Position numbers and translations under genes: made by a program. The notes under the pieces were generated by a model, which did not search any database, was not told the DNA's origin, and was given only the letters and a program-made list of their open reading frames with translations. From Strigamia acuminata (lineage: Eukaryota; Arthropoda; Chilopoda; Geophilomorpha; Linotaeniidae), in contig OX442314.1 of the NCBI GenBank assembly GCA_949358305.1, positions 45,950,581-46,014,580 of the forward strand: a stretch of DNA of 64,000 bases, given 5' to 3'. Below, in pieces: positions 51,003 to 63,355 of the stretch; the stretch's first letter is position 1, and each line of letters starts with the position of its first letter.

Positions 51003-52316
51003 ATGGAAACCTGCATGCTGGAAAATCTGTCTAGATGGGCGAATTCTCTCGGTATTACAGTAACGTCCGAAATGACCGCGGAAAATCTGCGTAAAATGGT
51101 CATTTCTCGGCAAAAACAACTGCTAGAACAAATGGAATGCGAATCGGCGGAAAGGCTGAAAAATATACACCAAACGAAATGCGAATCGGCGGAAAAACAG
51201 AAAAATACAATACAAACGAAATGCGAATCGGCGGAAAAACAGAACAATACAGAACAAACGAAATGCGAATCGGCGGTAAGACTGAAAAATATAGACCAAA
51301 TCAAATGCGAATCGGCGGCAAAACGGAAACGAGAAGAATGCGAATCGGAGGAAAGACAGAAAAATACAGAACAAACGAAATGCGAATCGGCGGAAAGACT
51401 GAAAAATACAAAACAAACGAAATGCGAATCGGCGGAAAGACTGAAAAATACAAAACAAACGAAATGCGAATCGGCGGAAAGACTGAAAAATACAAAACAA
51501 ACGAAATGCGAATCGGCGGAAAGACAGAAAAATACAGAACAAACGAAATGCGAATCGGCGGAAAGACTGGAAAATACAGAACAAACGAAATGCGAATCGG
51601 CGGAAAGACAGAGAAATACAGAACATATGAAATACGAATCGGCGGAAAGACTGAAAAATATGGACCAAATGAAATGCGAATCGGCGGCAAAACGGAAACG
51701 AGAAGAATGCGAATCGGCGGAAAGCCCGAAAAGGCTAAAACGAATAAAAGAGGAATGCGAAACACAAAACGAACCAATTACCACGTGCAGCGGACGGAGA
51801 GACGATCCACTCTATCCGTACGAAATGTTGTTTGTTTTCTACACGGACCAAGCGAGTGCCCACAAACAACTGGTCAATTTAGACGACTTCCAGCGCCGCC
51901 AGATGAGAACTACTAGCGACCGATTGAAACTTTTCGCCAACAAATTCACTAGCAATTCATTCGACGAGGATTTTGAGCAACGAGTCCATCTTTTCTACCA
52001 AATAGCCGTGCCGGTTATATCGCCAGTGACATTTTCCACGCGAACTCGCGCCTTTGCAGCCTGGGCGGTTGTTTTAAAAACGGCCGTTCAAATACCGGAA
52101 GCGTTGCAGACGGAATGGGTCGAAACATTTCCGGACGTCGTAGAACTGCGTAAGGAATTGGAGATGGATGCGGATGAGGAGGAAGAGAAGCCCGCCGAGA
52201 AGTATCGTCGAGTGCGCAGAGAGTTATCGGATGATCGGAGAAGTTGTGATGCAGACATCAAGAGGGTCACTGTTTCTGACAAACACACTCAGATAGATAT
52301 CCGTATTCGCCAATAG
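51003..52316 (+). CDS. 437-aa protein with about fourteen 14-residue repeats
   Basis: ATG at 51,003 (context CAACAAATGG) to TAG at 52,314. The N-terminus (LSRWANSLGITVTSEMTAENLRK) looks like a small helical, perhaps SAP-like, domain. Residues about 45-245 are repeats of KCESAERLKNTEQT, period 42 nt; two units are shortened to 11 residues (CESAAKRKRE). Each starts with a Cys-Glu-Ser core and is highly charged, likely helical. The C-terminal 180 residues (YPYEMLFVFYTDQASAHKQL..., FYQIAVPVISPVTFSTRTRAFAAWAVVL) look globular but are not recognised. It may be the gag-like protein of an unidentified element or a host gene. Shadow frames on both strands arise because the period is a multiple of three. 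Confidence 0.65.
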   Translation: METCMLENLSRWANSLGITVTSEMTAENLRKMVISRQKQLLEQMECESAERLKNIHQTKCESAEKQKNTIQTKCESAEKQNNTEQTKCESAVRLKNIDQIKCESAAKRKREECESEERQKNTEQTKCESAERLKNTKQTKCESAERLKNTKQTKCESAERLKNTKQTKCESAERQKNTEQTKCESAERLENTEQTKCESAERQRNTEHMKYESAERLKNMDQMKCESAAKRKREECESAESPKRLKRIKEECETQNEPITTCSGRRDDPLYPYEMLFVFYTDQASAHKQLVNLDDFQRRQMRTTSDRLKLFANKFTSNSFDEDFEQRVHLFYQIAVPVISPVTFSTRTRAFAAWAVVLKTAVQIPEALQTEWVETFPDVVELRKELEMDADEEEEKPAEKYRRVRRELSDDRRSCDADIKRVTVSDKHTQIDIRIRQ

Positions 52317-53001: not shown

Positions 53002-54035
53002 TCGCAGACCGGGTGTGTTGATAAAATTACACAAATAAGATCGTTTTTTTCAAATTAAAAGTCAACCGTTAGTCCGATCAAAACATTATTAGCACCATCA
53101 TTTTCAGCGACAAAATCTAGACAGGAAACTATATTTAAACATTCCAATTGGTCCTTTTTTCAAATTATTGGGTTTTTCCATGGTCGAATTCAAATTTTTA
53201 CTAAATTTCCAATTCGATCGCCCGCATCGGTACTTTTTCACGACCGAATAGTAATAAAAAAAATATAAAGGCATGTGCAGAATTGTCTCCTCTTTAAAAT
53301 GCACTTGGATTCAGAATTTTTGGACCTCATTATGACATAGAAAACATAAAAAAACGCATTGCTACGAACATTTTCAAATTTTCTCCTGAATTTTCCATTC
53401 AATCGTAATGCTACTTTTATTCGACCGAATTAAAACACAAAATATATCGGGCTGTGCAGATTTTGATTTCCAATCAAATGGGCTTGGTTCCAGAATTTTT
53501 GGACCTCATTTCGATGTAATAAACATCAAAAAACGTACCACGACGAACATTATGACATCCATTGTAGCAAACGGGATCCGCCAGGGGGCGCTCCGGCTTG
53601 TCAAAATTTTGGCTTAATTCACCAATTTCTATTAACTGCGATCATAATGTTAATTCTAACACACTGCAAGTTTTCAAAAACCTCGAATCGTCTCGTAACA
53701 ATAAAGTGTCGCCTGTTATTGTTAATCGTTCACGTTCAAAATCGATTTCAAGTTAGTCTCAACTTGAAAGAATGTAAAAGTTCACCCAAGGAAAGAACAA
53801 CACGTCCATTCGATCTGGTTACAAAGTTTACACTGGTTCTTTATTCGTTTTTAGAATATAGATTAAAAGATTAAAATAAAACAAAGGAAAATTCCAAATA
53901 TTCATGACACCTTAAAATATGATAATTTTGTCATCCGCGTCATATTCAAATGTGGGTCATCACACCAAATTCATGAACAATCAAAGGTCAAATACTAAAC
54001 AGAAACAATTATGCATTAAACATTATCAAACACTC
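53002..54035. other. AT-rich DNA with a diverged direct duplication
   Basis: Two blocks of about 150 bp at 53,227-53,373 and 53,408-53,556, period about 181 bp, share CGACCGAAT, GTGCAGA, TTGG.TTCAGAATTTTTGGACC-like words and AAAAAACG..ACGAACATT. Otherwise nothing recognised. Confidence 0.6.
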
Positions 54036-54390
54036 TGTGGTGGCCTGTGGTCACCAGGGTAGGTGAAAGCACAGAATTGATCTGAATTTATTGACAATTT
54101 ATTATTTTATTATTTTCGCAAATTAAAAGACAATAAGTTCTTGTCTACAGTGGGAGTTGCTATGGTAACCAAGCAGCAGCTTGGGGGGTGGCAGGAAATG
54201 CTTCCTGCCAACCAGGAAGATAAAGTAAAATATCTTCAGTCTAATATGAAACCTTGAACAGAAACCACTGAAAAATTACTCCTAAGTTACACTGAAATAT
54301 TTGGGATTAATTCGTGCTTTTGCCGAGGATTGGACTCCTTCTTGTGATACAACATTATTGTGTCACGGGAAATTCATCTTGCCGTCAAGA
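54036..54390 (+). repeat. Dispersed repeat with GGCAGGAA palindrome, copy 3
   Basis: TGTGGTGGCCTGTGGTCACC start, palindrome GGCAGGAAATGCTTCCTGCC at about 54,190-54,209, then TCTTCAGTCTAAT, AAAAATTACTCCTAA, GGACTCCTTCT and ATTCATCTTGCC. Same order as 35,150-35,420 and partly 10,045-10,400. It borders, or forms the start of, the LTR of gypsy copy B. Confidence 0.6.
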
Positions 54391-54399
54391 CATTGACGG

Positions 54400-55245
54400 A
54401 GAGATTTGTGCAACAGTCGAGCCATTCAAACTACGTCGCAGACGCCATTTGAACCACTCGACGATCCGAGCCAAGCCATTCCAACTACGTCGCCGACGCC
54501 ATTGGAACTACTTGGTAGAATAGAGCGAGCCATTCCAACTACGACAGAGTCGCCATTAGAACCACTCGTGAGGAGAGGGCCATTCGGACTACGAGATTAT
54601 CGCCATCCGAACTACCCGGAGAAGAAGTTAAGTTAATTCGAACTACGGCTCCGCCGCCATTTGGATTAACACGGTGAAGAAGCAACGCTGCTCGAACTAC
54701 GACTCGGTCGCCATTCGAGCAAGCGTGTAGAAGAAACCGAAATTGATCGGTCAGAGATAGAAGAAACTGCGATTGAGCAGCTACAACGAGAGTCATCAGT
54801 TGCTGCTGCGGAGAATCGGGAAAATCGTAAGTGACGAAGAGAACGTTATTCGGACGAAGCAGTACGAAAACGTCGCGTCGACGGGACGAACGGAGCCGGA
54901 GACGCCATTTTTATCTTTCCTTTCAAATTTTATCACTAATATTATTTAAGTTTAACTTAGTCATTATGTATAATTTTAGAGTTTAATCACTGTAAATCGT
55001 TTTTATCAGAGATAACTTTATTCAAGCTAAGAATAAATGAGAGTGTGTGTTTTTAAAGAATAAGTTTGTTTATTATCTTTGATTTGTTCAACTTAGTGTT
55101 GAATAAATCAATTGTTGAGTTAGAAGTGGTAAGTTTAGTCAGTATTTATTAAAATATAAGACCCGACGGGGCATTTAGTGATTTTCACGGCCATAATTCA
55201 AATAATTTGGGCTATTTTATTAACGAATAGGTCGGGATTACTACA
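54400..55245 (+). repeat. Probable 5' LTR of copy B (start unresolved)
   Basis: Ends TTACTACA at 55,245, two bases before the primer-binding site. TATTTAAG at about 54,944 may be the TATA box, which would place the hairpin array in U3. The left edge may be 54,036 (TGTGGTGG) or nearer 54,400; no second LTR is available to decide. Confidence 0.5.
54417..54726 (+). repeat. Array of six covarying hairpins with CTA/CCA internal loops
   Basis: Units at 54,417-54,461, 54,471-54,515, 54,525-54,569, 54,575-54,619, 54,632-54,670 and 54,685-54,726, step about 54 bp. Each has an inner 4-bp stem CGNC/GNCG with a 3-nt cap, an invariant internal loop CTA (5') / CCA (3'), and a middle stem of 6-7 bp that differs between units yet pairs: TTCAAA/TTTGAA, TTCCAA/TTGGAA, TTCGGA/TCCGAA, GCTCGAA/TTCGAGC. 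Units 1-4 add a second 3x3 loop (CCA with CCA or CTA) and an outer stem such as TCGAG/CTCGA or CCAAG/CTTGG. Unit 3 has one mismatch; unit 4 pairs weakly at both ends. Two smaller hairpins with an ATTGA loop follow (54,736-54,780). Confidence 0.9.
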
Positions 55246-55247
55246 CT

Positions 55248-55260
55248 TGGGGGCCTGGCC
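55248..55260 (+). promoter_or_regulatory. Primer-binding site of copy B
   Basis: TGGGGGCCTGGCC directly after the LTR end; resembles the complement of a tRNA-Pro 3' end, but the tRNA was not verified. Confidence 0.6.
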
Positions 55261-55365
55261 TTAGTATTTGAACCTAAACAACTAGTCATTTAGTTGAGGG
55301 ACATAACTTTGGGTTCTTGTTTTGATAGTTAGGCCTGTTTCTTTCTACTCTTTCTTTTGCTAACC

Positions 55366-55890
55366 ATGCCTTGGCCACGAGACCAACAGCGAGGACAGGA
55401 CGGCACGCGACGAGTTAGGACGAGAGGCGGACGCGATCACAGGCGAGCGAGATCGTTGTCGCCTTCCGACCATGAAGAAGGCACCACGCGCCAATTTAGC
55501 CAAGACTTTTGGCTCAAGCCTGACAGTCCTGATTCGCAAAAATCTACGCCGGTGCACAACGCCCCGTCTAGTATAAAATCAACGCCGCGCTCGAAGATGG
55601 ATATTTCGTTGCTACCTCGTGATAAACTTATAGCCGTCGCTACACGACAACGTCGTCTATTACGCGGTTACCAGGCAGCAGCAGCCCAGAAAGCGGCTGA
55701 CAGCGCACAATCGTCGGGCGAGAATTCTCCGACTCGACGAAAATTGAAGGAAGTAAGACAACAGATGCAAGACATTCTGCAAGAAGCTGAAGACAGCCTA
55801 GAACGGCAACGCATTCGGTACCAGCAAGGCGGTCCAATTTCCGACGATGAAGTCGACGCAATCGCCGCGGCATCGGCGGACCGTAGTTAG
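55366..55890 (+). CDS. gag N-terminal part of copy B
   Basis: ATG at 55,366 (context ACCATGCC). The product opens with an Arg/Gly-rich segment (RRVRTRGGRDHRRARS), then Ser/Pro-rich linkers and a predicted helical region (RRKLKEVRQQMQDILQEAEDSLERQRIRYQQ). It stops at TAG 55,888-55,890, one base before the next gag frame starts; the following frame has no ATG, so a one-base indel has probably split a single gag. No family domain beyond gag context. Confidence 0.6.
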   Translation: MPWPRDQQRGQDGTRRVRTRGGRDHRRARSLSPSDHEEGTTRQFSQDFWLKPDSPDSQKSTPVHNAPSSIKSTPRSKMDISLLPRDKLIAVATRQRRLLRGYQAAAAQKAADSAQSSGENSPTRRKLKEVRQQMQDILQEAEDSLERQRIRYQQGGPISDDEVDAIAAASADRS

Positions 55891-58852
55891 TGAAGCGTCT
55901 GCGATTGGAGGAACTTCAAGCCCAGCAAGCTAAACACGAGTACGAACTCCTCAAACAAACTTTGGATGAGGAACGACAACTTGAGAAACAGCAAATTGCG
56001 GAGGCAGAGGCGCATCTCCAATCGGAACGACAAGCTGAAAAGGATCATCTCGAAGCTACGAGAGTCCGCTTAGAAGCAGAACGACTGGCGTTAGCGTCGA
56101 AATTGACCGAAGTGGAAGCGAATGCAAACCAAGAGACCGAGTACCTTCGCCAAGAAGCGTTACGTGCGCAGGAAGAAGCTCATAGAGCAAAAAGGGCACT
56201 AGAAGACGCACAGTATTTGGCGCGAGTCCAATACCCGATTGCGCAGCCTGACGCAGCGAATCGGGACCCGCCAGAAGTAGTATTGGTTTCAGAGTCTGGA
56301 TCGAACCCTCTGAAAAGGGGGAGAGAAGGTGGGGATGAGCGTGGCGACAGAAAACGATCGTCACCTCCCTTACAGAACAGAAAATTATTTGACGTAATCG
56401 ATCAACGCAATCAACAGCATGGAGCTGCCAATCAATTTGATGAACCAAAAAGTAGTACTCTTGGCCCAATGGACATTCCAAAATGGAGTAATTTGCCTAG
56501 AACAATAGGACCTGACGGCAGATCACGCCCGACAGAACCATTACATCCAAAGGAAACATTCCAACATGAATGTGTCACTATTCCTGCGTCAAAAAGACAG
56601 GATAGACGACCAATGTATGATGAAGTATGGCCAACGAAGTATGATGAGAAGCTGAAAAAAGTTGTTGATTTCCAAGAACGTTGGATAAATGAAATCGAAG
56701 ATTGGAAAAGTAAAAGAAATCGTGATTCTCTTAGCAATAAAGATGCTAATAACAGCGACAGAGCTGGAAAAGAGAAAAATGAAAGTCACACATCGGGTCG
56801 TGATCAAGAAGTGCCGAGTTATGAATTTCCAAGAGATAATTCACGTTCCGCAAGGGATTACACCCACTCAGGAAACCCTGCACAGCAAGCTGAATATGAA
56901 CCATCAGGTCAGAAAAGCATGGGTGGAGGAAGCGCTAGTTACGAGAATACTAGCCAAGGAAATGACAGTCAAGGGCGCGGCCAAAGTCGCCCCGACGGAG
57001 AGCGCCAGCAAAGTAACGAAAACCGTTACGAATATCGCCCAGGCGACGGAGAACGTTGCGACAGTGATCAACGTCAACACGACGAAAATCGTCGCAACGA
57101 AGAACGACGTCGCAGAGACGAACAACGACAACGAGACGAAGCTCGTCGTAGAGACGATGAACGTCGACAAGACGAAAATCGTCGAAATGAGGAGCAGCGT
57201 CGAAGAGACGAGTATCGTCAAAATGAAGAGCAGCGCCGACGCGACGAATTTTACCGCAAAGAAGAGCGACGCCGGAGAAATGATGATGCTCGCCAGCAAA
57301 ACGCTCACCGAGGTGACGAACGTTACCAGAGAGACGATCCCCGTCAAAAAGAGGAATATCGTCATGGTAACAACCCACGTCGCGAAGAGGAATATCGTCG
57401 TAACGACGAACAACGTCGTAGAGACGAAAACCGTCATGACGATTACTCACGATGGAGTGAAGATTACACTGGTCGACAAGAACGGAAGTACTCACAATCT
57501 GAACATTTCCGCCAAAATGACGCAAGTTACGCGGGTCAAACCGGAAATAGACAGGGCAGACCTGATAATTCTCAATACAGAGAGCCGCCGCTTTCTGCTG
57601 GTACGTATGGTCCAACAGACAACACTGTTAAGTTGCAGGAGTACATTGAACAGCAGATAGATAAGCGCTTGGCAAAGATTCCATCCAGATCACAAGAGAT
57701 GGAAGAGGTACTGCAAAAACAGATCCGGAAGTATTGCATGGCAAATTGGACACATGTCTTTGTTAACGCATCCCAAATAAAATGGGACCGCATAACACCA
57801 GATACATTTGATGGTAGTTGGTCAGTAGGAACACGATTCCTGGATGAAGTGATGCAGATAGTGAGATGTCATGAAGCGGACCCTTATGACACTCTTAAGA
57901 GAATAATTCCAAAGATGTTGACAGGGGAGCCGCAAACTGGTTCTATGAACACGCGTTCACACACTGGGATGCGTTTGTTCACGAATATATGAAAGAATGT
58001 GGCGAGTCACAGGCAACTTTGGTGGATCGCTGGGACAACTTGCAACAGATGTTGGGTGAGGACCTCCGGTCATACCTACGCAGGACTGAAGAACTGATAA
58101 GTCACCTTCCAAACAAAGTCTGCAACTTTGCCGCTGATCGCCAATTTCGCCTAGGTTTGACGGAATTTTCAGAGAAGGTGCTGACAATGGTGAATGCGCC
58201 GATGGCCAGCTCGTTTGATAGGTTAGCGCAATTTATGCGCGACCACCAAATGTATATCGAAGATAGATATATAAAGTATTTGCCGCCTGATGAGCAAAGA
58301 GCTCGAGACGAATTGCAACAGAAACGTTCCGAACATGCAAGAACCAACCCTAAAATGATGCAGCCACAGCCACACCTCTCGTCACAACGCAAAGAGAGTA
58401 GTTACAATCGTAACCGAGAGCCGGGTCAGACACCTTACCCACCGCCAAAAATTCCAATGCGTCCTTCGGCAAAGCTAGTGTCGGAAGTAGACGACATGGG
58501 AGAATTTACTGGCAATCAAATGTTGTCAATGGACCTCACCGACCAACACATTGAGTCGATAGTGGAGGCAGTCGGCACCATGTACGCACGTAACAACCCA
58601 ACAGTTGCAAAGTACAAACCGCCAATGCAACCAAAGGCGACTAGTCAAACGACGCCTAAGTCTGAAGCGACAGAAAGTTCTGCGCAAGAGTTGAAAACGT
58701 GTTCGATTGATTTAACGAAAAAGACTCCGCTTGAGGAGATAGCGCAAGCCGGTCAAGCTTCGACTTCCACTGTAAAATTGGAAGGTAACGTGGAAGCGTC
58801 CACCCAACCCAGGTTGACCCCGGAGACAGCCCCTTGTCACAATTGCGGGTAA
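55890..58852 (+). pseudogene. gag of copy B: coiled coil, R/E/D repeats, capsid, broken zinc knuckle
   Basis: The first frame (55,890-57,992) has a long coiled coil (ELQAQQAKHEYELLKQTLDEE...), a spacer, then an unusual low-complexity region of RRRDEQRQRDEARRRDDE-type repeats (about 57,060-57,450) and the start of the capsid (ITPDTFDGSW). A one-base shift near 57,938 moves the capsid into the frame 57,989-58,852 (LVDRWDNLQQMLGEDLRSYL, RQFRLGL). The CCHC box begins CHNCG, but TAA at 58,850-58,852 follows; the remaining ligands (LGHW, C) lie after the stop, and the true gag end is UGA 58,958-58,960. Gag packages the RNA and forms the particle; this copy cannot make all of it. Confidence 0.85.
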
Positions 58853-58947: not shown

Positions 58948-58993
58948 AAAAAACATGTGAGCGCGGGTTCAGAAGATTCACTGAAACCCGCGC
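58948..58993 (+). promoter_or_regulatory. gag-pol -1 ribosomal frameshift signal (copy B)
   Basis: A AAA AAC at 58,948-58,954 in the gag frame (CAA AAA AAC ATG TGA). After a 6-nt spacer, GCGCGGGTTCAG (58,961-58,972) pairs with CTGAAACCCGCGC (58,981-58,993), 12 bp with one bulged A and an 8-nt loop. pol continues in the -1 frame from 58,957. Compared with copy A, one stem pair changes from A-T to G-C on both strands, keeping the helix. Confidence 0.9.
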
Positions 58994-60954
58994 CAACAAA
59001 TGACTCGGAAATTGCGCGAGAAGAAGAACTGGAAAAAACGATAGCTCCGGAACTTACTACAACAGTCCCAGAACCTACTCCAACTCCAGAACCAACAACG
59101 ACTTCAGAAACAAAAACTGCTCCTCCGATAAGGAAAGGATCAGTAATTTACGAAATTAGTAAGGGACAGATTATTGGTATGAGATTCCCACCTGTAGAAA
59201 TGGCAGCCTTAGCTAAGATAGAAGAAATCGTAGGAATCCCAACAACTGCGGAATCTACGGAAGCTGTCGAAGCTGCGGAATCTACGGAAGCTGTCGAAGC
59301 TGCGGAATCTACGGAAGCTGTCGAAGCTGCGGAATCTACGGAAGCTGTCGAAGCTGCGGAATCTACGGAAGCGATCAAAGCCATAGAATCTACGGAGGCT
59401 GCGGGAGCAGTAAACATTGCGGAAGCAGCAAATGTTGACGAAGTTGCATCAACGTCGAAAGCTTGTGATCTGAAACCCCAAGCACTGTCACTTGACGACA
59501 TGGAGCTAACGCCTCCAGAGGCAATAGGGACCATGCAAGGAGAAGTTGACAAGACTTGTGACGTTAAAAAGGATGCAAACGGGGCAACCCCATTCCCGAC
59601 GACCGATTTGTCTAAAATTCCCAAAATAGAGGAAGTTACGCAAATAGATGCGGCATATTTCACGGCAGAAATAGATCAAGCCCTAAAGAATGTAGGACTT
59701 GACGATGAAAATGAAGCCACTCTTTTTTGGGCAAACGTGAGAAACACGTATGAGAATGAGCCGTCAGAGGCCGCGTGGATGGTAGACACACCGGTAGAAC
59801 CCGTAGAATGGGATCCATTCCTCAAGGAATTACCAATAATCGAGCCAGAAGAAAAACCAAGGATTAGAGTTTTTAGAGCTCTTATTCCAGATCAAGATAT
59901 GTTAAGTGGAACGACCACTATGGAAATTTCCACGGAAAGTGGGACAATAATGGGTACACTTGATTCCGGCGCAAACCGAAGTTGTATCGCCTTGCCTTTG
60001 GTCCAAGATATGGAAATGGAAGATCAGATTTCCAGAGTGGGGCCAAACATGGCCATTAATACGGCCGACAAGAAGGTACAGCCGATAGGGTCGCTGCGGT
60101 TGACCTTCCGTTGGAGCCACGGGATAATGATCCATAACTTCCTCGTCTTGCCACATGAGATGAGATTCATGCTAATGGGCAATGACATAATGAAGCGGAT
60201 GAGAGTCCAACCTAACCCACTAAATGGAAAATGGAATTTTGTGCAGACACTTGAAGTTCCTGCACCCTATATCCATCAGGATGTACTAGACAGACTAGAA
60301 AAGAAATTGGAGGAGCCCGAGTCCTCGTGGAACACCTTTGCAAAGCAATCGAGCTTCTGTGCTTTTGAGGCACGACTCAAAGTGGGTAATGGTGTCCATG
60401 ATATGGTCGAAGAGGCCAAGCTCCAATTGACGGAAGCCGTGCAACTCGAGCATGTTCTCAAAAAATACGAGCACATCTTAACAAAGACGCCTGGGAGGAC
60501 ACACGTGTTGCACCACACAATAGATCTCGACACGGATAAGCCAATAAGGGTCCCTTACAAAAGCTGGAACCCTCAAAAAAGAGAAATCCTCTCAAAGCTA
60601 TGTCAGGAAATGCTAGATAAAGGCTACGTGTCCAAAGCGGAAGGAGATTACGGAGCTCGCATTGTGCTAGTCATGAAGCCAGGGTCAGAACCGAGGCTTT
60701 GCATAGACTATAGGCCAATTAACGAGCATACACTATATGATCCTCCGCAGATGCCTACGATCGACGAGATCCTACGCGAACTAGGCGAGTTTAAGTGGGT
60801 CACGACAATTGACCTCACTAAGGGATATTGGCAGATCGAGTTGCGGCCCGAAGACCGACCAAAAACGACCTTCTGGAGCCCGCTCGGTCGGCTGATGTTC
60901 AATGTAATGCCTTTCGGATTGGTGAACACGCTCCAACAACCTTCCAAAGGCTAA
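58957..60954 (+). pseudogene. pol of copy B, part 1: linker, protease, reverse transcriptase start
   Basis: 665 codons in the -1 frame. An acidic Thr/Pro/Glu linker contains four to five tandem 27-bp units (EAVEAAEST) at about 59,243-59,380. The aspartic protease motif LDSGANRS lies at about residue 335, and INTADKKV and LMGNDIMKRM follow. RT begins near residue 510 (HTIDLDTDKPIRVP), with LCIDYRPINEHT, motif A TTIDLTKGYWQI and MPFGLVN. A two-base duplication (ACAC, 60,926-60,929) throws the frame off just before the catalytic box, and the frame ends at 60,954. Confidence 0.87.
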
Positions 60955-62380
60955 TCGAGAAAGTTCTTGGGGACGCCCATAGGAGATATGCCTGGGCGTA
61001 CCTTGACGATATAGTTATCGTCTCGGCCACCTATGAAGAACATCTCCGGCACGTGGAGTCAGTTTTAGATAAACTTGACAAGGCAAACCTCCACATAAAC
61101 CCAGAAAAGTCCAAATTCTGCCGGAAAGAGCTGAAATTCCTTGGCTACACGCTGGGAATAAATGGACTTAGTGTCGACCCAAAGAAAGTAGCGGCCATTA
61201 CTCAGTTTCCAGCCCCAAAAAACCTGAAAGGTTTACAGCGCTTTATGGGTATGGTAAACTTCTTTCATCGCCTATTGAAGGATTTGTCTGCTGTTTCTGA
61301 GCCGTTACGTCCGCTCTTAAAGAAGGGCGTAGATTTCGTGTGGATTGAAGACCATCAAGCGGCTTTTGAGAAAGTGAAAAGGTTATTGGCTGACGCTGTC
61401 ACATTGAAGTTGCCCAACCTGAACAAACCATTCATAGTTCACACCGATGCCAGTTATCAGGGGTTAGGAGCTGCCCTGATGCAGCAACACGAGATTGATG
61501 GTCAAACCGTTGAGGTTCCATGCATGTACATTAGTCGTAGCTTACAACAAGCCGAGCTAAATTATAGTGCGACGGATTTAGAATGTCTCGCCGTGATCTG
61601 CGCCCTGCGCAAGTTTAGGCCGTACTTGGAATGTACCAAGTTTACGGTACAAACCGATCATCAGGCGCTGAAGTGGCTCATGGGGCTCGACGAGCCAACG
61701 GGACGCTTGGCCCGTTGGCAGATGGAACTCATGGGATATGACTTCAAGATCCATTACATTAAGGGCCCACTGAACGTATTGGCTGATGCGTTATCCAGAG
61801 ACCCAGTCCAAATGATCTGTGATGAGGAAGATACCGGGGAAGCTGACGGATTTATGTCATATTGCCCGACCAACCACCAAAAATGGACGTTCAATAACTG
61901 GAACCAACTGCCAGTGCTGGAAAGGCGACCAAACGAAGACGATAAGTTTGTGTCATATTGGTGCAATGCGTATAACTTGACGACGAATGAGTCGGAAGAG
62001 ACGCAAGAATGTCAAGGCGAAGAGCCATGGCCATATGAGCCAGTGACAGATAATGAAATGATCAAGACATTCATTGGCAAAGTTACGTCTCAGTTGGACT
62101 GTAAACCGCCAACGCGCCAGGAATTTGTAGATCACCAACAGAAGGATAAACACTGTCATGGTTTGAAAACTTATTTGGAAACCGAACAATTTCCACCATG
62201 GGTGACTACTCGACTACAGAGACGGAATTATAAGAAATTAGCATCATGTCACCTTATCGAAGACGACCTACTGTTGAAATACAGTCCAACCATTTCAGAC
62301 GAGTTTTCGGATGACAATCGCGCACTGAAAGTGGTGGTCCCGAAAACATTGCGATTTGAGTACTGTGGCTCAGTCATGGC
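60930..62380 (+). pseudogene. pol of copy B, part 2: reverse transcriptase and RNase H
   Basis: In the shifted frame the RT continues with TTFQRLIEKVLGDA and the intact catalytic box AYLDDIVIVS, then the thumb (LGYTLGINGLSVDPKKV, RFMGMVNFFHRLL). RNase H has its first acidic motif HTDAS, the DLECLAV segment with the second acidic residues, and the end motif NVLADALSRDP. All catalytic residues seen are normal, unlike copy A. A Glu/Asp-rich linker and a segment with ISDEFSDD lead to integrase. One base is missing near 62,355-62,375, compared with copy A. Confidence 0.87.
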
Positions 62381-62386
62381 CACCCA

Positions 62387-63355
62387 TTGGCCAGCCACTG
62401 CGGCATCAGTCGGACACTATACCGGATGCGATGTATCTACTCATGGGAGGACATGAAACCAGACGTAACAAGGTTTATCAAGCACTGCACAAGGTGCCAA
62501 GCGTGCAAGCCCCGTCCAAAGACCCAAGTAGAAGCTGCCGAAATCGGACCATACGCTCCCTTTGAGTGCCTAAGCGTCGATTTGGTTGGACCACTGCCGA
62601 GAACGGTAGAGAGTAATAATTATATCCTGGTGGTGTTGGATATCGCCACGAGGTGGCCCAAACTATATCCGTTAGAGGACCCTACTGCTCAAACGATAGC
62701 CGATTGCATTTACGACACCTCGATGGACTGGGGTTTTCCGGTTAAGATCATATCGGACAATGGCCCACAGTTCAAGGCGCGGTTGTATCAAGAGTTTTGC
62801 AAAAAGTTCAAGATCTTTCCCAAGTTCACCTCTCCGTATCATCCGCAAGCCAATCCGGTCGAGAGGTTGAACCGGGATATCAAATATTCGATCGCCCTAT
62901 ACACTGCAATCCACTCGAGATGGGACGAATATCTCCGGGAGATAGCATTTAGTGTACGCACAACCGACACTAGAGGACGGGGATATTCGCCGGCGTACCT
63001 TAACACGGGAAGAGAGTTCCAGATCCCATGGGACCCAAGAGTCCTCGATGGTATAATGAAGATTGACCCTCAGAAGCCGCATGAATACGTGCAAAGGCTA
63101 GAGAAAGTGATACGAGACACTTATCAGCATATGATGGCCCATATTGTTGACTTACGCGAACGGGTGCGAAACCACAAAGAAGACGCAAAGTTCGCAGACT
63201 TCAGAGTGAATGATTTAGTATGGCGAGAGCCACGTTTTGTCGCAAGCAGCGAAGGGAATTTCCGCCAAACTTGCAGACAAAAGAACAGGTCCTTACGTTA
63301 TAACACAGATCCACCAAGGTGGAGCCGCAAAACTGCGAAGACTACGGGACAATAA
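62387..63355 (+). pseudogene. pol of copy B, part 3: integrase
   Basis: The zinc-binding domain begins in the previous frame and continues here (ASHCGISRTLYRMRC, KHCTRCQACKP). The catalytic core shows the D,D35E triad: SVDLVGPLP, IISDNGPQFKA and NPVERLNRDIK. The C-terminal domain follows (PWDPRVLDGIMKIDPQKPHEYV, FRVNDLVWRE). A one-base loss near 63,232-63,243 shifts the frame, and the last part of this frame (from about 63,235) is out of register. The enzyme inserts element DNA into chromosomes; the frame changes on both sides disable this copy. Confidence 0.87.

What the first reader, a model, noticed from the sequence alone, without database searches (positions are those of the whole stretch)
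54417..54726. Six regularly spaced hairpins built on an invariant CTA/CCA internal loop
Every unit repeats outer stem - CCA - middle stem - CTA - CGNC-cap-GNCG - CCA - stem - C(C/T)A - stem, at a 54-bp step, while the stems themselves change in a compensating way (TTCAAA/TTTGAA, TTCGGA/TCCGAA, GCTCGAA/TTCGAGC; inner CGTC/GACG, CGAC/GTCG, CGGC/GCCG). Loops are constant and stems vary, the opposite of simple repeat decay. This looks like a structured RNA or DNA module, perhaps for gag binding, packaging or expression control. I know of no described element of this form.
Basis: partly seen in the sequence, partly recalled or inferred. Interest (0 to 1): 0.92.

Follow-up and report, generated by a model that had tools for sequence, protein, structure and literature searches.

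The report
Covarying RNA hairpin array in retrotransposon LTR
A jumping gene in a centipede-like genome carries in its terminal repeats a row of small hairpins whose stems change in matched pairs while their inner loops stay the same, the mark of a working RNA structure whose exact job is still unknown.

Summary
Six 43-nt hairpins (54418-54726, + strand) follow one plan: outer stem, 3x3 loop, 6-bp stem, 3x3 loop CTA/CCA, inner stem, cap. They lie in the 1,210-bp LTR (54036-55245) of a Ty3/gypsy-type element, between a conserved initiator-like TCAGTC and a conserved GTAAGT and AATAAA, so probably in R and the 5' leader. Related LTRs in this genome carry 2-6 such hairpins with other stems. Stem B pairs fully in 16 of 19 distinct arm pairs, and none of 20,000 arm permutations reaches the observed pairing. 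The five best of 780 column pairs are stem pairs, though only one passes a rough tree-based null at E<0.05. Stem B deviations are 16 G.U against 3 A.C on the + strand, and AUGs are depleted there, so I read it as sense RNA. Against this, the minus strand folds more stably. Best reading: a multivalent protein-docking array that marks or handles the element's RNA, with two-fold-related internal loops like the MPMV CTE but without its AAGACA motif. The partner protein and the step served are unknown. Rfam has no match. New variant of a known kind.

The parts
54036..55245 (+). LTR (TGTG...TACA), 1210 bp, containing the array
   Evidence: L001 vs L002 and vs L003: alignment runs over exactly these bases, 99.6% identity; ends read
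54156..54170 (+). GTTGCTATGGTAACC, RFX X-box-like palindrome in predicted U3 (name recalled)
   Evidence: sequence; GTTRCYANGGYAACC in 11 of 14 LTRs
54236..54241 (+). TCAGTC, arthropod initiator-like (consensus recalled); predicted TSS A=54238, so U3=54036-54237
   Evidence: [TC]CAGTCT in 14 of 14 LTRs at the same aligned place; no transcript data
54339..54371 (+). leader hairpin upstream of the array
   Evidence: a hairpin is predicted here in the 14 LTR segments folded; stem sequences differ between families
54382..54399 (+). leader hairpin CCGTCAA/TTGACGG just upstream of the array
   Evidence: folds; other families show hairpins of other sequence in this stretch (e.g. L013, L015, L017)
54418..54460 (+). 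hairpin unit 1
   Evidence: R1 60.2 bits; folds as the template
54472..54514 (+). hairpin unit 2
   Evidence: R1 61.7 bits; folds as the template
54526..54568 (+). hairpin unit 3 (one C.A mismatch in stem B)
   Evidence: R1 58.9 bits; MFE opens part of stem B
54576..54618 (+). hairpin unit 4 (3-bp inner stem, 5-nt cap)
   Evidence: R1 58.0 bits
54630..54672 (+). hairpin unit 5 (outer loop replaced by pairs TAA/TTA)
   Evidence: R1 56.5 bits
54684..54726 (+). hairpin unit 6 (outer loop mostly paired)
   Evidence: R1 50.7 bits
54827..54832 (+). GTAAGT, candidate 5' splice site just downstream of the array
   Evidence: in 14 of 14 LTRs, at one aligned place in the 13; the two bases before it are not AG; no transcript data
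55032..55037 (+). AATAAA poly(A) signal; predicted end of R shortly after
   Evidence: GAATAAAT invariant in the 13 LTRs aligned
55366..55890 (+). first gag-region open frame (ATG 55366); further open frames 55890-57992 and 57989-58852
   Evidence: no Pfam match in the three frames at E<=0.001, so 'gag' rests on position
58957..63355 (+). pol: RT, RNase H, integrase in three overlapping open frames, left as they are
   Evidence: Pfam RVT_1, RT_RNaseH, rve, Integrase_H2C2

Best explanation
The array is a sense-strand structured RNA in the R region (5' leader, and again in the 3' UTR) of a Ty3/gypsy-type LTR retrotransposon. A complete hairpin presents two 3x3 internal loops (CYA opposite CCA), related by a half turn about a 6-bp stem. 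A protein, or a protein dimer, reads the loops; the stems only hold them in place and so drift by paired changes. Repetition gives multivalent binding. Most likely the partner is made by the element (Gag first, the product of the 829-aa RS-rich 3' ORF second) and the array marks the RNA for packaging and/or export. Shown here: location, architecture, covariation, and confinement of the tested patterns to this LTR lineage apart from unrelated matches. Inferred: transcription start, RNA rather than DNA action, protein binding, which protein, which step.
For: Units picked on the inner-loop motif and the first two stem-C pairs: stem B, not used for picking, is 99.5% paired in the 32 gapless distinct units, and the covariation score of the structure is 0.495 vs shuffle mean 0.207 (0/500) and slid versions <=0.148. 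Of 19 distinct stem-B arm pairs 16 pair fully; arms from different pairs do so in 136 of 342 cases; 0 of 20,000 permutations reach the observed pairing. The top 5 of 780 column pairs in 45 distinct units are stem pairs. Strand: 16 G.U vs 3 A.C in those 19 arm pairs (read; one-sided sign test 0.002, events not independent); a scan allowing both alike gives 23:2 in stem B of 42 units. AUGs between initiator and AATAAA: 1-4 in each of 14 LTRs; at most 2 of 200 shuffles as low in any of them; the minus strand has 14-22, above its shuffle means of 10.3-13.1 except where nearly equal to none, in part because each arm holds CAT. Outer loop CYA/CYA at a 6-bp distance in 25 of 47 distinct units, while inner stems run 3-9 bp and arrays hold 2-6 units. 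Genome patterns: 59 of 62 and 7 of 17 matches lie in these LTRs. Candidate donor GTAAGT in 14 of 14 and a 3' ORF with dN/dS 0.12 between two families make handling of unspliced RNA a plausible need.
Against: The minus strand folds better (-140.1 vs -97.9 kcal/mol; z -6.5 vs -3.2), because CCA/CYA loops become U.G, G.R, G.U there. In the + strand MFE and centroid of the whole array units 3 and 4 do not form as drawn. The tree-based null leaves only one pair at E<0.05. Two simpler covariation measures do not exceed the shuffles (pairs changed on both sides 91/500, further pair types 105/500). The G.U excess is weak in stem C (10:6) and reversed in stem A (4:11; its register is unreliable). Stem A is paired in 71.9% of cells only, and 10 of 47 distinct units have the outer loop closed or nearly so, as in units 5 and 6. 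There is no evidence of protein binding. The array lies upstream of the candidate donor, so it would be on spliced RNAs too and cannot by itself pick out the genome.
Confidence: 0.5

Rival explanations
1. CTE-like nuclear export element: a host export receptor or adaptor binds the two-fold-related internal loops so that unspliced RNA, which keeps the GTAAGT donor, leaves the nucleus.
For: Two-fold loop arrangement as described for the CTE in PMC4330393 (passages); GTAAGT just downstream in 14 of 14 LTRs; 3' ORF with intron-like borders alike in two families.
Against: The CTE loop motif AAGACA is not in the unit loops and occurs elsewhere in only 6 of 14 LTRs. The CTE is one long stem-loop of 150-175 nt with two internal loops (PMC7551171 passages), not a row of short ones.
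Confidence: 0.22
2. Translation or RNA-stability control: hairpins in the leader and 3' UTR bind host proteins that set translation or decay.
For: AUG depletion through the leader suggests that ribosomes scan it; position in both UTRs follows if it is in R.
Against: No direct evidence; constant internal loops ask for a specific reader that remains unnamed.
Confidence: 0.15
3. dsDNA binding-site array (for example an insulator or enhancer, as the Su(Hw) sites in Drosophila gypsy, recalled): the 12 arms are sites and pairing is incidental.
For: The arms share much sequence (alignment), and arms of different units pair fully in 136 of 342 cases; the LTR has other conserved DNA motifs.
Against: Arms are complementary (16 of 19) rather than identical as direct repeats (1 of 19, itself self-complementary), and own pairing exceeds all permutations; G.U excess on one strand in stem B.
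Confidence: 0.05
4. Antisense RNA hairpins: the minus-strand transcript, more stable, is the functional form (for example a small-RNA source).
For: Minus-strand MFE -140.1, z -6.5; the constant loops are wobble pairs around G.R there.
Against: Stem B changes would then be 16 A.C mismatches against 3 wobbles; AUGs are not depleted on that strand. Antisense promoters were not looked for.
Confidence: 0.06
5. Mutational origin without function: palindrome-templated correction of a tandem repeat keeps the arms complementary.
For: Neighbouring units are alike enough to be scored as a tandem repeat; templated correction can copy one arm to the other (recalled).
Against: It would not favour G.U over A.C in stem B, nor keep the unpaired inner loops constant between families that differ by dS about 0.43 in the 3' ORF.
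Confidence: 0.04

Closest known systems
[quoted passage not shown]
   Same: Retroelement RNA; internal loops in two-fold symmetry read by protein (PMC4330393 passages)
   Different: One long stem-loop of 150-175 nt (PMC7551171 passages) with AAGACA loops; here 2-6 short hairpins with 3x3 CYA/CCA loops in an arthropod LTR, no AAGACA in the loops
HIV-1 Rev response element and other Rev-type elements (recalled; PMC4488727 listing only)
   Same: Structured RNA with several binding sites for an element-encoded arginine-rich protein; here a 3' ORF with an RS/R-rich stretch exists
   Different: RRE is one structure in env; no binding is shown here and the loops differ
Leader packaging/dimerisation structures of retroelements (Ty1 5' domain, PMC5454406; MMTV, PMC8096270; starts of abstracts in listings)
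   Same: Structured leader of a genomic RNA near the primer binding site
   Different: As far as those abstracts show, not a tandem array of one repeated two-loop hairpin; packaging untested here
Drosophila gypsy Su(Hw) insulator (recalled)
   Same: About a dozen short repeats in the 5' part of a Ty3/gypsy element
   Different: DNA sites; here the arms are complementary and covary

Membership tests
Ty3/gypsy LTR retrotransposon (host element) | TG...CA LTRs flanking the element | tested here: met
   The LTR recurs from C1:46018298 and C1:46030669, 99.6% identical to the window copy at C1:46004616
Ty3/gypsy LTR retrotransposon (host element) | pol order RT - RNase H - integrase | tested here: met
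   Pfam order in frames 58957-63355; some RT relatives are named as transposon 17.6 or 297
Ty3/gypsy LTR retrotransposon (host element) | tRNA primer binding site after the 5' LTR | tested here: inconclusive
   CTTGGGGGCCTGGCC follows the LTR; three short matches to this region occur at other repeats; no tRNA was matched to it
MPMV/SRV CTE | internal loops in two-fold symmetry | tested here: met
   outer CCA/CYA and inner CTA/CCA about a 6-bp stem in units 1-4; not in units 5-6
MPMV/SRV CTE | AAGACA in the internal loop | tested here: not met
   unit loops are CYA/CCA types; AAGACA is in 6 of 14 LTRs, outside the units in the window copy
MPMV/SRV CTE | NXF1-NXT1-dependent export | not testable with these tools
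   needs cell assays
Any Rfam 15 family | match to a covariance model | tested here: not met
   0 matches at E<=1 in window 53900-55500
Su(Hw)-type DNA site array | repeats alike as direct DNA sites | tested here: not met
   1 of 19 stem-B arm pairs identical as direct repeats; 16 of 19 complementary. Binding itself was not testable
Retroelement packaging signal | binding by Gag and need for encapsidation | not testable with these tools
   no binding data

The most novel reading that the evidence does not exclude
A Rev/RRE-like system in an invertebrate Ty3/gypsy element: a tandem, expandable array of two-loop docking hairpins bound cooperatively by a protein that the element itself makes from a spliced RNA (the orphan 829-aa RS-rich ORF), with array size and stems free to change while the loop code is kept.
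Probability: 0.13. Interest if true: 0.85.

Novelty: new variant of a known kind. Interest (0 to 1): 0.62.

Why it matters
Structured cis-acting RNAs of animal Ty3/gypsy elements are, to my knowledge, much less studied than those of retroviruses. Here dozens of natural variants of one hairpin show what is kept (inner loops, often a 6-bp spacing) and what is not (stems, caps, unit number), so the partner protein and the step it serves can be sought by direct experiment.

Tried and rejected
Rejected: coding repeat (the longest start-to-stop frame touching the array is 85 aa, on the minus strand; the longest on + is 76 aa; neither spans it); chance palindromes; direct-repeat DNA sites; known Rfam RNA; CTE membership; three other repeats matched only near the primer binding site (L030-L032, no model hit); extra pattern matches L033-L035 and L044 (no model hit); a nine-copy repeat (L038-L043, L045-L047) that matches a pattern by reverse-transcriptase coding DNA (RVT_1, tested on L038 only) with 15-bit partial model hits. 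LTR fragments L026, L027 and L029 match only LTR parts downstream of the array and give no model hit.

Limits: my tree-based covariation test used a tree built from the same short units, so its null is rough. The loose template scan found 4 of the 6 units in the array (it merges neighbours; shuffles gave 0 in 463 and 1 in 37 of 500) and also fitted 154 places on + and 162 on - in the window, the array's own included, so it is not specific; one search replaces it. Rows dropped: one loop-motif match in L017 (position 1354) that is not a unit was left out (outer loops); it is in the 48, where it adds 2 of the 25 G.U against 3 A.C. Two units of L010 overlap and both are in the 32. In one search, 61 of 103 distinct hits were set aside as not array-type; most are the same units shifted by one base. 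LTR-level counts use 14 LTRs; near-identical copies (L002, L003, L007, L014, L016, L020-L025), the duplicate L012 and the fragments L026, L027, L029 were left out there. L017 was left out of the 3' alignment but checked for GTAAGT. Several LTRs listed were not fetched. Other eukaryote genomes could not be searched.

Full report
Setting. The window is a 64-kb piece of a 237.5-Mb, 157-contig genome. For a host MFS gene in the window the two best protein hits are from Strigamia maritima (75% and 64% identity), so the host is probably a centipede related to it; this rests on one gene. The array sits in an LTR of 1,210 bp, 54036-55245, which recurs 13.7 and 26.1 kb downstream at 99.6% identity. The frames that follow hold RT, RNase H and integrase in Ty3/gypsy order.

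The observation. Six units of 43 nt follow A4-L3-B6-L3-C4-cap-C4-L3-B6-L3-A4 on the + strand. The inner loop CTA/CCA is in all six; the outer CCA/CYA loop is in four and is closed or nearly so in units 5 and 6. Steps are 54, 54, 50, 54, 54. A covariance model made from 32 distinct units, these included, finds just these six in the window. Folded alone, units 1 and 2 take the template exactly, 4-6 with small changes, and unit 3 opens part of its mismatched stem. Shuffles do not give this.

Related copies. The stretch 54300-54900 gives 37 match rows in the genome, 69-100% identical. Distant copies carry the same hairpins with other stems: model hits per LTR searched run from 2 (L012) to 6 (window). 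In L010 neighbouring units fold into one larger hairpin, and in L010, L011, L013, L015, L018 and L019 the last unit has a 9-bp inner stem. Genome-wide patterns built on the inner loop found 62 and 17 places, against 2 and 1 for the reversed control patterns. 59 and 7 of them lie in LTR copies listed; 9 lie in one repeat that codes for RT (tested on one copy); 4 are single other places without a model hit.

Covariation. Units were collected on the inner-loop motif with the first two stem-C pairs (48 distinct, one of them not a unit). In the 32 gapless ones stem B is paired in 99.5% of cells, stem C in 95.3% and stem A in 71.9%; the covariation score is 0.495 against 0.207 in shuffles (0/500) and at most 0.148 in slid versions. 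Two simpler measures of that call, pairs changed on both sides (91/500) and further pair types (105/500), do not exceed the shuffles. Among 19 distinct stem-B arm pairs 16 pair fully; arms from different pairs do so in 136 of 342 cases, since all arms are alike, but no permutation of 20,000 reaches the observed pairing. In a rough tree-aware test the five best of 780 column pairs are stem pairs, but only one has E<0.05. Without any loop constraint, 3x3 hits in 14 LTRs number 72 against 4.3 in shuffles, and 32 of 51 distinct ones have CTA/CCA or CCA/CCA.

Which strand. Energy favours the minus strand (-140.1 against -97.9 kcal/mol), because the constant loops turn into U.G, G.R, G.U there. Evolution favours the plus strand: stem B holds 16 G.U and 3 A.C over 19 distinct arm pairs, and 23 and 2 in 42 units of a scan that allowed both alike. 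Stem C gives 10 and 6, stem A 4 and 11, the last with unreliable register. AUGs are rare on the plus strand between the initiator and AATAAA: 1-4 in each of 14 LTRs, with at most 2 of 200 shuffles as low; the minus strand has 14-22, above its shuffle mean in each of the 14, in part because the arms hold CAT. I therefore take the sense RNA as the form under selection, with some doubt left.

Place in the transcript. [TC]CAGTCT stands at one aligned place in 14 of 14 LTRs, GTAAGT just after the array in 14 of 14, and GAATAAAT in all 13 of the 3' alignment. If the first marks the start site (arthropod initiator, recalled), the array begins 180 nt into R and would be at both ends of the full-length RNA and on spliced RNAs that use GTAAGT. 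Between pol and the 3' LTR lies an 829-aa frame without Pfam match or homolog among the candidates scored, intact as 834 aa in a second family with 89.5% identity and dN/dS 0.12; intron-like borders before it are alike in the two families. A spliced RNA, and so a need to handle unspliced RNA, is plausible but not shown.

How it most likely works. The inner loops, and where an outer loop exists its 6-bp distance, are kept while stems, caps and unit number drift. That is what a protein reading the loops would leave. The two loops of a complete unit are equivalent under a half turn, as in the CTE, each symmetrical unit of which takes one Tap-p15 (PMC4330393, passages). CTE membership fails on AAGACA. 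I think that a protein of the element, Gag first, most likely reads the array to mark the genomic RNA; export by a host factor is the main rival. Neither is tested.

Novelty. Rfam has no match. Seven answered paper searches listed nothing that I recognised as such an element; I saw listings, and passages of three papers (PMC7551171, PMC4330389, PMC4330393), so this is a limited check. I rate it a new variant of a known kind, the structured cis-acting leader RNA of a retroelement.

Noticed in passing
54156-54170: RFX X-box-like palindrome GTTGCTATGGTAACC (pattern in 11 of 14 LTRs), and near it an ETS-like inverted repeat CAGGAAATGCTTCCTG (a loose pattern in 13 of 14); names recalled.
   Followed up: partly
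L036:1836-4325 (C1:46015735-46018224, outside the window): Orphan 829-aa ORF between pol and the 3' LTR with an RS/R-rich stretch; no Pfam match, no homolog among candidates scored, intact in a second family, dN/dS 0.12.
   Followed up: partly
L036:918-1832: Intron-like stretch (GAGGAG|GTATTT ... ATATTTAG) between a short R-rich reading frame and the 829-aa ORF, borders alike in L037.
   Followed up: partly
54339-54399: Two further leader hairpins upstream of the array; hairpins are predicted in this stretch in the other LTRs too although the sequences differ between families.
   Followed up: partly
57070-57435: The gag-region frame encodes many RRxDEx-type repeats (18-bp and 36-bp DNA period), possibly a charged helix or RNA-binding stretch.
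   Followed up: no
C1:46004616-46031878: Three LTRs in a row about 13.7 and 12.4 kb apart, so a tandem or recombined element pair starts in this window.
   Followed up: no
51125-51698: 42-bp tandem repeat, about 14 copies, within open frame 51003-52316 upstream of the LTR.
   Followed up: no
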